The position numbers and the translations under genes are program-made. From assembly GCF_022749195.1 (NCBI RefSeq), contig NZ_CP094226.1, positions 1,452,001-1,516,000 on the forward strand: a DNA stretch of 64,000 nt. Reading direction: 5' to 3'. The notes beneath the pieces are model-generated. The model was not told the DNA's origin, made no database searches, and saw only the letters and a program-made list of their open reading frames with translations. The stretch comes from Streptococcus oralis. Lineage in GTDB: Bacteria > Bacillota > Bacilli > Lactobacillales > Streptococcaceae. Numbering within the stretch: position 1 is the stretch's first letter; each line of letters begins with the position of its first letter. Shown here in pieces: positions 5,653 to 54,613 of the stretch.

Positions 5653-5692
5653 ATCCGTTTGGTTTCCCAAGCGGATGTTTTGTTTGTTTTAT
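5653..5692 (+). terminator. intrinsic terminator between the TVP38-like gene and scrK
   Basis: Ten-base stem ATCCGTTTGG/CCAAGCGGAT (5653-5662, 5667-5676; one wobble), followed by GTTTTGTTTGTTTT on the plus strand. It lies between converging genes. Confidence 0.75.
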
Positions 5693-6576
5693 TTTGCGAC
5701 ACTCTTAGCAAGGACAAAGTTCCCAAGTGTGGCAGAACCATTTCCAGCAACTGCTGGAGTCACGATGTAGTCACGCACATCTGGTACTGGTAGGTATCCA
5801 TTGAGAAGAGCTGTAAATTTCTCACGCACACGGTCCAGCATGTGTTGTTGGGCCATAACCCCACCACCAAAGACGATGACGTCTGGACGGAACGTCACGG
5901 TAGCATTGACCGCAGCCTGAGCGATATAGTAGGCTTGAACATCCCAGACAGAGCTGTTGAGTTCGATGTTTTCGCCACGAACACCTGTACGAGCTTCTAG
6001 ACTTGGTCCAGCCGCAAAGCCTTCCAAACAACCCTTATGGAAAGGACAAACGCCGTTGAATTCTTTTTCAATATCCATTGGATGTTTAGCTACATAGTAA
6101 TGCCCCATTTCAGGGTGACCTACACCACCGATAAACTCACCACGTTGGATAACACCTGCACCAATTCCTGTACCGATTGTGTAGTAGACCAAGTTCTCGA
6201 TACGGCCGCCAGCATTGTTACGGGCAACTACTTCACCGTAGGCAGAGCTGTTTACGTCTGTGGTGAAATACATGGGTACATTAAGAGCACGACGAAGGGC
6301 ACCAAGCAAGTCGACATTTGCCCAGTGAGGTTTTGGAGTCGTTGTGATAAAGCCATAGGTTTTGGAGTTTTTGTCGATATCGATTGGACCAAATGATCCG
6401 ACAGCAAGCCCAGCAAGGTTATCGAATTTTGAAAAGAATTCGATGGTTTTATCGATCGTTTCGATAGGAGTTGTTGTAGGAAACTGTGTTTTTTCTACAA
6501 TGTTAAAATTTTCATCTCCGACAGCACAGACAAACTTTGTACCGCCCGCTTCTAAGCTTCCATATAATTTTGTCAT
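5689..6576 (-). CDS. scrK: ROK-family fructokinase
   Basis: Phosphorylates fructose released from sucrose 6-phosphate to fructose 6-phosphate. From the ATG at 6576 (AGAGG seven bases upstream) the protein has 295 residues; a longer in-frame ATG at 6615 has no ribosome site. It starts with the ATP-binding LYGSLEAGGTKF and carries the ROK signature around YYTIGTGIGAG and GGVGHPEMGH. The zinc-binding His/Cys cluster HKGCLEGFAAGPS follows. The C-terminal ATP-binding block is VIVFGGGVM. It lies downstream of scrA on the same strand, as in other streptococcal scr loci, and a hairpin separates the two genes. Confidence 0.92.
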   Translation of the reverse strand: MTKLYGSLEAGGTKFVCAVGDENFNIVEKTQFPTTTPIETIDKTIEFFSKFDNLAGLAVGSFGPIDIDKNSKTYGFITTTPKPHWANVDLLGALRRALNVPMYFTTDVNSSAYGEVVARNNAGGRIENLVYYTIGTGIGAGVIQRGEFIGGVGHPEMGHYYVAKHPMDIEKEFNGVCPFHKGCLEGFAAGPSLEARTGVRGENIELNSSVWDVQAYYIAQAAVNATVTFRPDVIVFGGGVMAQQHMLDRVREKFTALLNGYLPVPDVRDYIVTPAVAGNGSATLGNFVLAKSVAK

Positions 6577-50994: not shown

Positions 50995-51384
50995 ATGGGA
51001 ATTGAAGAACAACTTGGCGAAATCGTTATCGCCCCACGTGTACTTGAAAAAATCATTGCTATTGCTACTGCAAAAGTAGAGGGTGTTCACTCTTTTTCAA
51101 ACAAATCAGTATCTGACACCCTTTCAAAACTTTCTCTTGGCCGTGGTGTTTATCTTAAAAACGTGGACGAAGAGCTCACAGCAGATATCTATCTCTACCT
51201 TGAGTACGGAGTAAAAGTTCCTAAGGTAGCGGTTGCTATCCAGAAAGCTGTTAAAGATGCAGTCCGCAATATGGCTGATGTAGAACTTGCTGCTATCAAT
51301 ATTCACGTTGCAGGTATCGTTCCAGATAAAACACCAAAACCAGAATTGAAAGATCTATTTGACGAGGACTTCCTCAATGACTAG
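50995..51384 (+). CDS. Asp23/Gls24 family protein (YqhY-like)
   Basis: A 129-residue protein of the Asp23/Gls24 (DUF322) family: GEIVIAPRVLEKIIAIATAK near the start and VPKVAVAIQKAVKDAVRNM. YqhY in B. subtilis lies next to the acetyl-CoA carboxylase genes and affects their activity; here the acc genes lie only 2.5 kb downstream, on the other strand. It overlaps nusB by eight bases. Confidence 0.9.
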   Translation: MGIEEQLGEIVIAPRVLEKIIAIATAKVEGVHSFSNKSVSDTLSKLSLGRGVYLKNVDEELTADIYLYLEYGVKVPKVAVAIQKAVKDAVRNMADVELAAINIHVAGIVPDKTPKPELKDLFDEDFLND

Positions 51385-51799
51385 TCCACTATTAGAATCT
51401 AGACGCCAACTCCGTAAATGCGCTTTTCAAGCTCTCATGAGTCTTGAATTCGGTACGGATGTCGAAACTGCTTGTCGTTTCGCCTATACTCATGATCGTG
51501 AAGATACGGATGTGCAACTTCCAGCCTTTTTGACAGAGCTAGTTTCTGGTGTTCAGGCTAAAAAGGAAGAACTAGACAAGCAAATCACACAGCATTTAAA
51601 AGCAGGTTGGACCATCGAGCGTTTAACACTCGTGGAGAGAAACCTCCTTCGCTTGGGAGTCTTTGAAATCACTTCATTTGACACCCCACAGTTGGTGGCG
51701 GTTAATGAAGCTATTGAGCTTGCAAAGGACTTCTCAGATCAAAAATCTGCCCGTTTTATCAACGGACTGCTCAGCCAGTTTGTAACAGAAGAACAGTAA
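51377..51799 (+). CDS. nusB: transcription antitermination factor NusB
   Basis: A 140-residue all-helical RNA-binding factor needed for rRNA antitermination. ATG at 51377 chosen (GAGG upstream); the earlier TTG is unlikely. Typical blocks are RRQLRKCAFQALMSLEF, ERLTLVERNLLRLGVFE, VAVNEAIELAKDFSD and RFINGLLSQF. It closes the efp-yqhY-nusB operon. Confidence 0.94.
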   Translation: MTSPLLESRRQLRKCAFQALMSLEFGTDVETACRFAYTHDREDTDVQLPAFLTELVSGVQAKKEELDKQITQHLKAGWTIERLTLVERNLLRLGVFEITSFDTPQLVAVNEAIELAKDFSDQKSARFINGLLSQFVTEEQ

Positions 51800-51803
51800 A
51801 TAG

Positions 51804-51840
51804 AAAAAGTGTTTGACAATTATCAAACACTTTTTTCTTT
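51804..51840. terminator. bidirectional terminator, first of two identical copies
   Basis: AGTGTTTGA/TCAAACACT (51808-51816, 51823-51831) with A and T runs on both sides, between nusB and the first CPBP gene. The same sequence recurs at 52950-52987. Confidence 0.8.
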
Positions 51841-51848
51841 GCCTACCA

Positions 51849-52574
51849 CTATCTAAAAAAATGGTAATAGACATAATTATAAACAAAAATCCAGATGGGT
51901 TTTGCATAAATGAGAAAGTTGAAAAAACTATGGCACAGGATGGTAATTTTTAAGTTCTTTGTCCAACGGTAGACAAGGGCATAGAAAAGACCGCCTAAAC
52001 TATAAATAATCAAACTGATAGGATCTCGGTGAGTTAGGATCAAATGACTAAGTCCAAAGATAAGAGCAGATAGGATAACATCCAGATAGTACTTGGACTG
52101 GGGAAAGAAGGTATTCATAAAGTACCCTCTATGAATCAGTTCCTCTAATATAGGTGCGAAGACTACTGTTAAACTAAAACTGAGAACAGTTGATAGAAAA
52201 GTTGGTTGCCCATTGGAGAATAGAATCGAAAGAAGGTCTTGAAAGATATACTTGTTATCAATTAGGTGATGAAACTGTAACTGAAAAGCATCCACCAATT
52301 GACGATCAAAATAAGTAGCCACTAGAGCAACTACAAGGTAAAAGAATCTTGACTTCTTTGAACCCTTTTTTTCAAAAATATAGAGCATCTCTTTCTTTTT
52401 GAGCCAGTAGATAAATAATAGCAAAAGAGCCATTACTTCAACTGTTAAAAAGATAGAATAGCCATCTATCCCCAATCCTAAAAACTTAGTTAGATGCATA
52501 ATCCCTAACTCTGGTAGATAAACCGATAGAAATACCAGTGATGTATAGACTCCCAAATACCCTAGTTTTTTCAT
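51849..52574 (-). CDS. CPBP-family intramembrane protease, copy 1
   Basis: A 241-residue polytopic protein of the CPBP (Abi, CAAX protease-like) family. The conserved active-site motif EELIHRGY (Glu-Glu...Arg) is followed by GLSHLILTHRDP with the second His, and CHSFFNFLIY near the C-terminus. In streptococci such proteins often sit in bacteriocin loci, where some give immunity or process peptides. It starts 18 bases after the double-glycine ORF, and they probably share a transcript. It is paralogous to the CPBP gene at 52995. Confidence 0.85.
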   Translation of the reverse strand: MKKLGYLGVYTSLVFLSVYLPELGIMHLTKFLGLGIDGYSIFLTVEVMALLLLFIYWLKKKEMLYIFEKKGSKKSRFFYLVVALVATYFDRQLVDAFQLQFHHLIDNKYIFQDLLSILFSNGQPTFLSTVLSFSLTVVFAPILEELIHRGYFMNTFFPQSKYYLDVILSALIFGLSHLILTHRDPISLIIYSLGGLFYALVYRWTKNLKITILCHSFFNFLIYAKPIWIFVYNYVYYHFFR

Positions 52575-52592: not shown

Positions 52593-52868
52593 TCAATAGC
52601 CAATACCATAAGCACGTCTAGTCGCATGATTCAGTATTGTACTCCATTCTGTCGCTAAACTATATGCATATGGCGAATCCCAATGTCTATCGTCAACTAA
52701 CCAAATCATACCACCACCTGAAACTTGCTCTAAGTCCTCAGATGAAAGAACTGTAAATATTTCTGTACCTGTCCTATCAAGTAGCTCCTTAAAATAAATT
52801 TTTGTCAGCTTACATCTACAGTATATATCTTTTTTATCTATTTTATAGTCCATCTCCTCAACTGTCAA
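52593..52868 (-). CDS. putative bacteriocin-like peptide with double-glycine leader
   Basis: A 91-residue ORF from a TTG at 52868 (AGGA seven bases upstream); an ATG at 52853 directly follows a GAGGAG. Residues 41-52, LSSEDLEQVSGG, match the double-glycine leader pattern LSxxELxxIxGG at every key position (-12, -11, -8, -7, -4, -2, -1). Cleavage would free a 39-residue core starting GMIWLVDDRHWD and ending TRRAYGIGY; it is aromatic-rich and cysteine-free. The 40-residue part before the leader is unusual. It is flanked by two CPBP protease/immunity-like genes. Function inferred from leader and context. Confidence 0.55.
   Translation of the reverse strand: MTVEEMDYKIDKKDIYCRCKLTKIYFKELLDRTGTEIFTVLSSEDLEQVSGGGMIWLVDDRHWDSPYAYSLATEWSTILNHATRRAYGIGY
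52785..52790 (-). promoter_or_regulatory. internal AAGGAG ribosome-site-like sequence in the peptide ORF
   Basis: AAGGAG at codons 27-28 of the peptide ORF, where a ribosome site would stand if the leader began near codon 33 as in ordinary double-glycine peptides. No in-frame ATG, GTG or TTG follows at the right distance. Confidence 0.35.
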
Positions 52869-52949
52869 TTTTTCATCCTAAATGGTAGCTTTACTCATTG
52901 AGAAATAAGAAATTGATAAAAGAGATTTCTCTATCTTCCCATTAAATTA

Positions 52950-52987
52950 GAAAAAGTGTTTGACAATTATCAAACACTTTTTTCTTT
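52950..52987. terminator. bidirectional terminator, second identical copy
   Basis: Same 36-base sequence as at 51804-51840 (stem 52955-52963 with 52970-52978), lying just after the stop of CPBP copy 2. Confidence 0.8.
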
Positions 52988-52994
52988 GTCTCCA

Positions 52995-53696
52995 CTATCT
53001 AAAAATCAAATAATAGATATAAAATAAGAGCGACGGAGCATAGGGAATCGCATTATAGAAACTATGACAAACAATAGTAAATCGAAGACTACCCGTAACT
53101 CGATAAGCAACTGCAAATAGAAGACCGAGAATACTATAAATTATGAGACTGATGGGGTCACGATGGGATAGAACCAAGTGACTGAGCCCAAAGATGAAAG
53201 AAGACAAGATCACATCCAAATAAAATTCCGACTTCGGAAAGAAGGTATTCATAAAATAACCTCTATAGATTGTCTCCTCAACAACAGGTACAATCGAAAT
53301 GTTAAAGATTAAAAATATAAGACTTGATAGAGTCGTTTCTCTTCCGTTTGAGTAAAGTTCTGAAAGAAGATCTTGGAAAATAAAGCTATGGTCAATCAAT
53401 CGAATATTCTGCATTCTAAATCCATTTAGAAAAGAATAGATAAGAAAGCAAGCCACTAAGAAAGCGAGATAAGACCAGCGCCAATCCTTTTTCTCGAAGA
53501 TAAAGAGCATCTTCTTCTTTTTCAACCACAAAACGAATAAAAAGAAAATAAGCAACACTTCTCCAACTAGAAAGATTATATAGCTGTCCATTCCTAAACC
53601 AAAGATTCTAGCTAGAGTTATAGCCCCTAATGGAGTTAAATAAATGTACAGGAACATTAAAATCATACAGATTCCTAAATGTATTGTCTTTCTCAT
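52995..53696 (-). CDS. CPBP-family intramembrane protease, copy 2
   Basis: A 233-residue polytopic protein clearly paralogous to copy 1. It has EETIYRGYFMNTFFPKS, GLSHLVLSHRDPISLIIYS and CHSFYNAIPY, the same spacing of motifs, and the same N-terminal hydrophobic layout. The two copies also share their terminator. It is probably transcribed ahead of the double-glycine ORF, though a terminator lies between. Immunity or protease function is inferred from the family. Confidence 0.85.
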   Translation of the reverse strand: MRKTIHLGICMILMFLYIYLTPLGAITLARIFGLGMDSYIIFLVGEVLLIFFLFVLWLKKKKMLFIFEKKDWRWSYLAFLVACFLIYSFLNGFRMQNIRLIDHSFIFQDLLSELYSNGRETTLSSLIFLIFNISIVPVVEETIYRGYFMNTFFPKSEFYLDVILSSFIFGLSHLVLSHRDPISLIIYSILGLLFAVAYRVTGSLRFTIVCHSFYNAIPYAPSLLFYIYYLIFR

Positions 53697-53845: not shown

Positions 53846-54613
53846 TTAGTATTTTCTAAAACGTTGGTAACGTTCTTCGATAAGTTGGTCGAGTGGTAGT
53901 TCTTTCAACCTATCTAGTTCTGCACGCAATTCATTTTTAACGCAACCTAGCAGTTCTTTACTTGACAGCCCTGCTTCTGAGATTACCTTGTCTACGATTC
54001 CCATTTCTAGGAGTTCATGTGAAGTGATTTTCATCAACTCCGCCGCTTCCATAGCACGACTTCCATCCTTCCAAAGGATAGAGGCAAATCCTTCCGGGCT
54101 AAGTACTGCGTAGATTGAGTTTTCTAACATCCAGACACGGTTAGCTACGGCTAGAGCTAGGGCCCCACCAGATCCTCCTTCACCGATAATAATTGCAATG
54201 ATTGGAACCTTGAGGTCACTCATTTCCATCAGGTTTCGGGCAATTGCTTCACCTTGTCCACGTTCCTCGGCACCAACACCTGGGTAAGCACCCGCCGTAT
54301 TGATAAAAGTCACAACTGGACGGCCAAACTTTTCTGCCTGTTTCATCAGGCGCAAGGCCTTACGATAGCCTTCTGGATGTGGTTGCCCAAAATTTCGTTT
54401 GAGGTTGTCATGAAGACTTTTTCCCTTTTGGATACCAACGACAGTTACTGCCTGTTCACCTAACCAACCAATTCCACCGATGACCGCACCATCATCACGG
54501 AAAGAGCGATCTCCATGCAATTCGATAAACTCGTCAAAGATTCCATTGGCAAAATCAAGTGCAGTCAAGCGACTCTGCTCGCGTGCCTCTCTGACTATTT
54601 TTGCAATATTCAT
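53846..54613 (-). CDS. accA: acetyl-CoA carboxylase carboxyltransferase subunit alpha
   Basis: With AccD it moves the carboxyl group from biotin to acetyl-CoA, giving malonyl-CoA. The 255-residue subunit has [59 protein letters not shown] and [14 protein letters not shown]. It is short, as usual in streptococci. It overlaps accD by four bases and is the last gene of the operon. Confidence 0.96.

What the first reader, a model, noticed from the sequence alone, without database searches (positions are those of the whole stretch)
52593..52868. Candidate new double-glycine peptide bacteriocin
The ORF contains LSSEDLEQVSGG, which matches the double-glycine leader consensus at all seven key positions. 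It is followed by a 39-residue aromatic-rich, cysteine-free core (GMIWLVDDRHWD...TRRAYGIGY) that I cannot place in a known class. It is followed directly by a CPBP-type membrane gene, a family often found as bacteriocin immunity. The leader match is seen; antibacterial or signalling function is inferred. Peptide signals use the same leader type.
Basis: partly seen in the sequence, partly recalled or inferred. Interest (0 to 1): 0.75.

Follow-up and report, generated by a model that had tools for sequence, protein, structure and literature searches.

The report
Competence peptide cassette lacking start codon
This is a mouth-streptococcus version of a known competence-controlled secreted peptide gene (the briC locus), carrying a different active part than the known peptide; in this genome the gene has lost its normal start codon, so it is probably silent.

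Summary
The leader, 39-residue core and CPBP gene are real, but the ORF as drawn is not the gene. Its TTG start lies inside a ComE-type box, about 55 nt upstream of the predicted transcription start. Most relatives start at an ATG about 80 nt after the box, behind a Shine-Dalgarno; this genome and two others have AGG there, so this copy is probably not translated normally. The locus is that of briC (SPD_0391/SP_0429): between accA and nusB, ComE box with the spacing published for briC, BriC-type leader. NCBIfam BriC matches the leader only (32 bits, cut-off 120), so the core is not BriC's. In relatives two main core types (A as here, B = BriC) sit behind one promoter and leader, and each has its own CPBP clade (17 of 17 A and 7 of 7 B units). 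A full CPBP without an intact peptide is common (28 of 96 intervals); an intact peptide with no full CPBP is rare (2 of 96). This fits a swapped peptide-partner cassette, bacteriocin-immunity or signal-partner; sequence cannot say which. One C39 exporter and comC are present. Verdict: a core variant of the known briC locus, silent here; "bacteriocin" unproven.

The parts
53846..54613 (-). accA; upstream border of the briC locus
   Evidence: ORF; 100% identical to accA of three S. oralis records; borders the locus in relatives
52995..53696 (-). CPBP gene 2 (233 aa), orphan copy next to accA, without a recognised peptide or ComE box; separate CPBP clade
   Evidence: PF02517 68.6 bits; tree
52856..52887 (-). 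ComE-type box TACCATTTAGG-N11-ACAGTTGAGG
   Evidence: 1 mismatch to the consensus in PMC6560143; same place in the relatives listed
52820..52825 (-). predicted -10 TATACT, 31 nt after ACAGTTGAG, the spacing printed for the S. mitis briC orthologue SMSK321_0027
   Evidence: sequence; PMC6001120 Table 2
52785..52790 (-). Shine-Dalgarno AAGGAG
   Evidence: sequence; same or similar in relatives
52713..52775 (-). double-glycine leader, 21 codons; codon 1 (52773-52775) is AGG where most relatives have ATG
   Evidence: NCBIfam BriC model matches here
52596..52712 (-). core, 39 codons (type A): GMIWLVDDRHWDSPYAYSLATEWSTILNHATRRAYGIGY
   Evidence: search with the core alone
52593..52595 (-). stop codon of the peptide
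51849..52574 (-). CPBP gene 1 (241 aa), partner of type A cores
   Evidence: PF02517 68.6 bits; groups with the CPBPs behind type A cores
51377..51799 (+). nusB, downstream border of the locus (convergent)
   Evidence: listed from a TTG at 51359; the ATG at 51377 is the likelier start, by eye; synteny

Best explanation
This is the briC locus of a Streptococcus oralis-like genome with an alternative core. Shown in sequence: ComE-type box, -10, BriC-type leader, a core unlike BriC's, a CPBP gene of the clade that goes with that core type, an unbroken frame, and a non-start codon where relatives start. Inferred mechanism in intact relatives: CSP activates ComD and ComE; ComE switches on the peptide and the CPBP gene; ComAB cuts the precursor after Gly-Gly and exports a 39-residue peptide; the CPBP protein in the membrane is the core-specific partner (immunity or handling of the peptide). 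Inferred state here: promoter and CPBP kept, peptide not made or hardly made because the start codon is lost.
For: Synteny accA-[peptide-CPBP]-nusB. ComE-type box and 31-nt spacing to TATACT as printed for the S. mitis briC orthologue. NCBIfam BriC NF033771: leader-only match for the window (32.2 bits) against 143.8-150.1 bits over positions 1-60 for three type B peptides of the same locus. In three genomes with both units in tandem, promoter 82-89% and leader 86-97% identical in DNA, core 29-37%, CPBP 66-67%. Core type and CPBP group agree in 17 of 17 A and 7 of 7 B units with a full CPBP: A against B 54-69% identical, B against B 87-99%. C39 exporter; comC and a LytTR regulator 2 kb from it. 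AGG at the start place in 3 of 34 leader copies found in 31 of 100 genomes (G000, G049, G007).
Against: The ComE-type box alone is not significant genome-wide: 1 match at up to 1 mismatch, and 1 for the reversed control pattern; the case rests on position and conservation. With this consensus the box before comC has 3 mismatches and the best one before comA 5, so the consensus fits this genome only loosely; comD was not tested. The frames behind the AGG are intact in 3 of 3 genomes, and 20 of 22 retrieved proteins with Arg at that place reach the end of the core (one search list, read; the search favours long frames), which is odd for a long-dead gene. Core-CPBP agreement could come from linkage alone. 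In the window a second CPBP gene lies between accA and the peptide.
Confidence: 0.8

Rival explanations
1. Bacteriocin-immunity cassette: the peptide harms related cells and the CPBP protein protects the maker; loci that lost the peptide but kept the CPBP are immune non-producers.
For: Core-specific CPBP groups. Of 96 intervals examined, 20 have an intact peptide and a full CPBP, 28 a full CPBP without an intact peptide, 2 an intact peptide with only a broken CPBP, 5 only a broken CPBP, 41 neither. Peptide loss beside a full CPBP takes several forms: lost start, early stop, frameshift.
Against: BriC is reported as a biofilm and colonisation peptide (PMC6181422, PMC8265628). G039, probably S. 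pneumoniae, keeps an intact BriC but a CPBP cut by a stop, matching the pseudogene reported downstream of briC in D39 and R6; G266 (type C) and the own partner of the G214 peptide are frameshifted too (G214 keeps an orphan-clade CPBP). Of the 28 CPBP-only intervals, many show no peptide trace, 4 of them holding only the orphan clade. Type A cores are slightly acidic. No killing data.
Confidence: 0.35
2. Signal with core types as pherotypes; the CPBP protein processes or senses the peptide rather than giving immunity.
For: BriC role in biofilm, ComE control and ComAB export (PMC6181422, PMC7595303, passages). A CAAX protease, SilX, is reported to act on signal-peptide function and not immunity in S. 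anginosus (abstract of PMC9298176).
Against: The accA-nusB interval of most loci that carry the unit is only about 1.1 to 3.2 kb and is taken up by the peptide and CPBP units, so no receptor gene is linked; CPBP-only loci are hard to explain for a processing enzyme without its substrate.
Confidence: 0.4
3. The 91-residue (or 86-residue) ORF is translated from the upstream TTG or ATG on read-through transcripts, giving a 47-52 residue leader.
For: An AGGA lies 7 nt before the TTG; briC is co-transcribed with fab genes in pneumococcus (PMC8265628). Arg-type frames stay open.
Against: TTG and ATG lie upstream of the predicted start of the ComE transcript; the upstream frame has stops in 3 of 15 loci and no coding bias; most relatives have an ATG with Shine-Dalgarno; a terminator-like hairpin at 52951-52986 lies between CPBP gene 2 and the box (by eye).
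Confidence: 0.12
4. Pure remnant with no present function in peptide or CPBP.
For: Start codon lost; 41 of 96 intervals lack the locus.
Against: Both CPBP frames are full length and keep EExxxR, FxxxH and HxxxN (motifs recalled; read). Cores of ATG-type relatives show pN/pS 0.32-0.58, though the two untranslated control frames of the promoter stretch gave 0.59 and 0.72, so the contrast is modest.
Confidence: 0.13

Closest known systems
BriC (SPD_0391/SP_0429; NCBIfam NF033771) and the co-listed ydiL gene of S. pneumoniae
   Same: Locus after accA, ComE box, -10 spacing, leader, peptide followed by a CPBP gene (that ydiL is this CPBP is inferred)
   Different: Core not matched by the model; 32 against cut-off 120 bits; CPBP of another clade; start codon lost in the window
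Class II double-glycine bacteriocins with CPBP (Abi, CAAX) neighbours, such as the pneumococcal Blp cassette with pncP (passage in PMC6722419)
   Same: Gly-Gly leader, C39 exporter, CPBP neighbour, exchangeable cores
   Different: Pfam PF10439 below cut-off; box fits the ComE consensus (the BlpR consensus was not scored); slightly acidic core; no activity data
Competence-induced bacteriocins Cib (S. pneumoniae) and Cab (S. mitis)
   Same: Competence control and Gly-Gly leader (passages of PMC7595303, PMC13059744)
   Different: Other loci; the S. mitis bacteriocin operon upstream of comAB is under SigX in PMC6001120 (passages), here the box is of ComE type

Membership tests
BriC (NF033771 equivalog) | Whole-protein score at or above 120 bits | tested here: not met
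   32.2 bits, profile positions 2-25 of 60 only; three type B peptides of the same locus 143.8-150.1
BriC (NF033771 equivalog) | Leader homologous to BriC's | tested here: met
   E 9.3e-08 over the leader
briC locus | ComE box upstream with briC-type spacing | tested here: met
   Table 2 of PMC6001120
briC locus | Position between accA and nusB, CPBP downstream | tested here: met
   in the window an extra CPBP gene lies between accA and the peptide
briC locus | Induction by CSP through ComE; export by ComAB | not testable with these tools
   C39 exporter, comC and a LytTR regulator are present; comD was not tested
Class II double-glycine bacteriocin | Pfam PF10439 or TIGR01847 above cut-off | tested here: not met
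   13.2 against 27.1 and 13.8 against 15.7 bits; two relatives, P0111 and the type C peptide, pass TIGR01847
Class II double-glycine bacteriocin | Antibacterial activity and immunity | not testable with these tools
   only indirect: core-CPBP pairing and CPBP-only loci
Functional precursor gene in this genome | Start codon behind the Shine-Dalgarno | tested here: not met
   AGG at 52773-52775
CPBP / Rce1-like (PF02517) | Score above gathering cut-off | tested here: met
   68.6 bits for both genes, cut-off 22.4

The most novel reading that the evidence does not exclude
The briC locus is a polymorphic, competence-switched cassette site across mitis-group streptococci: one conserved promoter and leader, exchangeable secreted cores and a matching CPBP partner for each core. 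Pneumococcus has fixed one core and lost the partner, so that its biofilm peptide BriC is a domesticated member of a competition system, and strains such as this one are silent carriers that keep only the partner genes.
Probability: 0.35. Interest if true: 0.65.

Novelty: new variant of a known kind. Interest (0 to 1): 0.45.

Why it matters
BriC is treated as a pneumococcal biofilm peptide without a known receptor (PMC7595303 lists it as unknown). If its locus swaps cores together with a CPBP partner in commensals, the partner gene becomes the obvious candidate for what the peptide acts on or what protects against it, and simple deletion and peptide-addition tests in commensal strains can decide between signal and bacteriocin. 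It also shows that ORF calling can misplace the start in this family.

Tried and rejected
The 91-residue ORF as the precursor was rejected (start inside the ComE-type box, stops upstream in 3 of 15 loci, no coding bias). No known bacteriocin class passed its cut-off for the window peptide. The core with another leader: the 80 matches are, by id, those plus seven new ones (P0147-P0153), six of them 38-residue frames and one of 60; I did not read these seven. Solved structures: one match at E 0.56, taken as chance. A genome-wide ComE-box scan was uninformative at 2 mismatches (9 matches against 8 for the reversed control). A first count of full CPBP genes by length alone (20, 2, 31, 2, 41) was too lenient, because G216, G149 and G204 passed with broken genes; one search replaces it (one search was the same script, stopped by an error). 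The tree was made with the lenient set and its support values were not inspected. The phage, plasmid and E. coli collections and structure prediction were not used. Literature: 'BriC' with 'CPBP' gave one unrelated paper; BriC with immunity and bacteriocin (15 of 47 listed), BriC with oralis and allele from 2019, S. oralis with bacteriocin, ComE and double-glycine and the gene numbers gave no listed title or opened passage that describes core-CPBP pairing at this locus; most listed papers were seen as titles and abstract starts only. The BriC paper names four further alleles in related species, in a supplement that I could not open (no look-ups allowed), so type A cores may already be among them.

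Full report
Observation. The ORF 52593-52868 on the minus strand, its leader, its cysteine-free core and the CPBP gene behind it are as described. A strict leader pattern, written after seeing this leader, occurs once in the window and not at all in 30 Markov copies. The genome is S. oralis-like: its accA is 100% identical to that of three S. oralis records.

Where the gene starts. The listed TTG start overlaps a ComE-type box, TACCATTTAGG-N11-ACAGTTGAGG at 52856-52887, one mismatch from the consensus printed in PMC6560143 (passages seen; scans). TATACT follows 31 nt after ACAGTTGAG, the spacing printed in Table 2 of PMC6001120 for the S. mitis briC orthologue SMSK321_0027 (passages seen). By the published 42-44 nt rule the transcript starts near 52813, downstream of the TTG. 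In most relatives with an intact peptide the precursor starts at ATG, usually 76-81 nt after the box (185 in one), behind AAGGAG or something close to it. The upstream frame has stops in 3 of 15 loci with the same spacing and no better pN/pS than the other two frames. Here the start position holds AGG. So do G049 and G007: 3 of 34 leader copies, which occur in 31 of 100 genomes; three further copies, all with truncated cores, have AGC there. G000 is one contig of 1.88 Mb, and 22 of 146 retrieved proteins have Arg at this place (protein level only, and a sample biased by the query), so a sequencing error is unlikely. This copy is therefore probably silent; the intact frame leaves room for recent loss or unusual initiation.

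What the locus is. In pneumococcus, briC (SPD_0391, SP_0429) lies 159 bp after accA in strain R6D, is induced by ComE, is exported with a prominent part played by ComAB and promotes late biofilm and colonisation (PMC6181422: abstract, one part of ten of its main section, and passages; PMC8265628: first of five parts). ydiL, a putative membrane peptidase, stands next to briC in the list of induced genes (PMC6560143). The window peptide lies in the same accA-nusB interval. NCBIfam BriC (NF033771, cut-off 120 bits) matches the window only over the leader, 32.2 bits, but gives 150.1, 149.3 and 143.8 bits over positions 1-60 for peptides at the same locus in G039, G211 and G045. G039 is probably S. 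pneumoniae: its box is CCAGTTGAG-32-TATACT, as printed for SP0429 (inference).

Core types and CPBP clades. Of 284 Streptococcus genomes searched, 33 match the 60-residue precursor. I fetched the 6 kb after accA from the 100 genomes with accA at least 88% identical. Core types there: A (window type, with mosaic variants), B (BriC), C in one genome, G266, and truncated or divergent forms. Of 70 CPBP units, 61 are full by a strict test (coverage of a reference from end to end and a start codon in place); 24 of these follow an A core (17) or a B core (7). By best reference 17 of 17 and 7 of 7 agree. A-B identities are 54-69%, B-B 87-99%, A-A 64-100%; without G099, whose partner stands apart in the tree, A-A is at least 76%. 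Left out of this count: units with truncated, unclassified or type C cores and broken CPBPs. CPBPs of peptide-less S. infantis-type loci also group with the A side. In the three genomes with A and B in tandem, DNA identity is 82-89% in the promoter, 86-97% in the leader, 29-37% in the core and 66-67% in the CPBP gene. So the exchange unit looks like core plus CPBP behind a constant promoter and leader. Linkage of neighbours explains part of this; it does not by itself show function.

Loss pattern. Four of the 100 intervals were dropped because their contig ends. Of the other 96, 20 have an intact peptide and a full CPBP, 2 an intact peptide with only a broken CPBP (G039, G266), 28 a full CPBP without an intact peptide, 5 only a broken CPBP, 41 neither. 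Intact peptide meant ATG and at least 58 residues; the Gly-Gly was not required, and G081 in the first group has Gly-Ser. G214, also in the first group, has a frameshifted partner behind its peptide and a full CPBP only of the orphan clade. Four of the 28 hold only the orphan clade. The CPBP usually outlives the peptide, as expected for immunity, but G039, G266 and G214 argue against a strict toxin-immunity rule.

Machinery. The genome has one C39 peptidase transporter, a comC gene with a box 3 mismatches from the pneumococcal consensus, and a LytTR regulator about 2 kb away. The best box before comA has 5 mismatches. comD was not tested.

Verdict. A core variant of the known briC locus, with the peptide copy probably silent in this genome. 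A competition function is possible, a signal is about as likely; nothing here separates them.

Noticed in passing
52995-53696: Orphan CPBP gene of a third clade next to accA, 11 of the 61 full CPBP units; no recognised peptide or ComE box is linked to it, so its partner is unknown.
   Followed up: partly
51804-51838 and 52951-52986: The same hairpin, AAAGTGTTTGACAATTATCAAACACTTTTT, occurs after nusB and between the peptide box and CPBP gene 2, as if a unit had been duplicated with its terminator (seen by eye).
   Followed up: no
L187 (G039): nusB is 98.6% identical to the window's while accA is only 90%, so the nusB end of the probable pneumococcal locus looks S. oralis-like, suggesting recombination.
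   Followed up: no
L154 (G266) 5658-5840: A third core type (KVIFLGDSDNCPYPGEF...), 61.3 bits to the BriC model, with a frameshifted CPBP gene behind it.
   Followed up: partly
L137 (G212) near 2168 and L153 (G216) near 121 of the accA-oriented stretch: Differently damaged type B units: in G212 the start is lost and the frame shifted beside a full CPBP gene; in G216 the Gly-Gly is changed, the stop is lost and the CPBP gene itself is cut short.
   Followed up: partly
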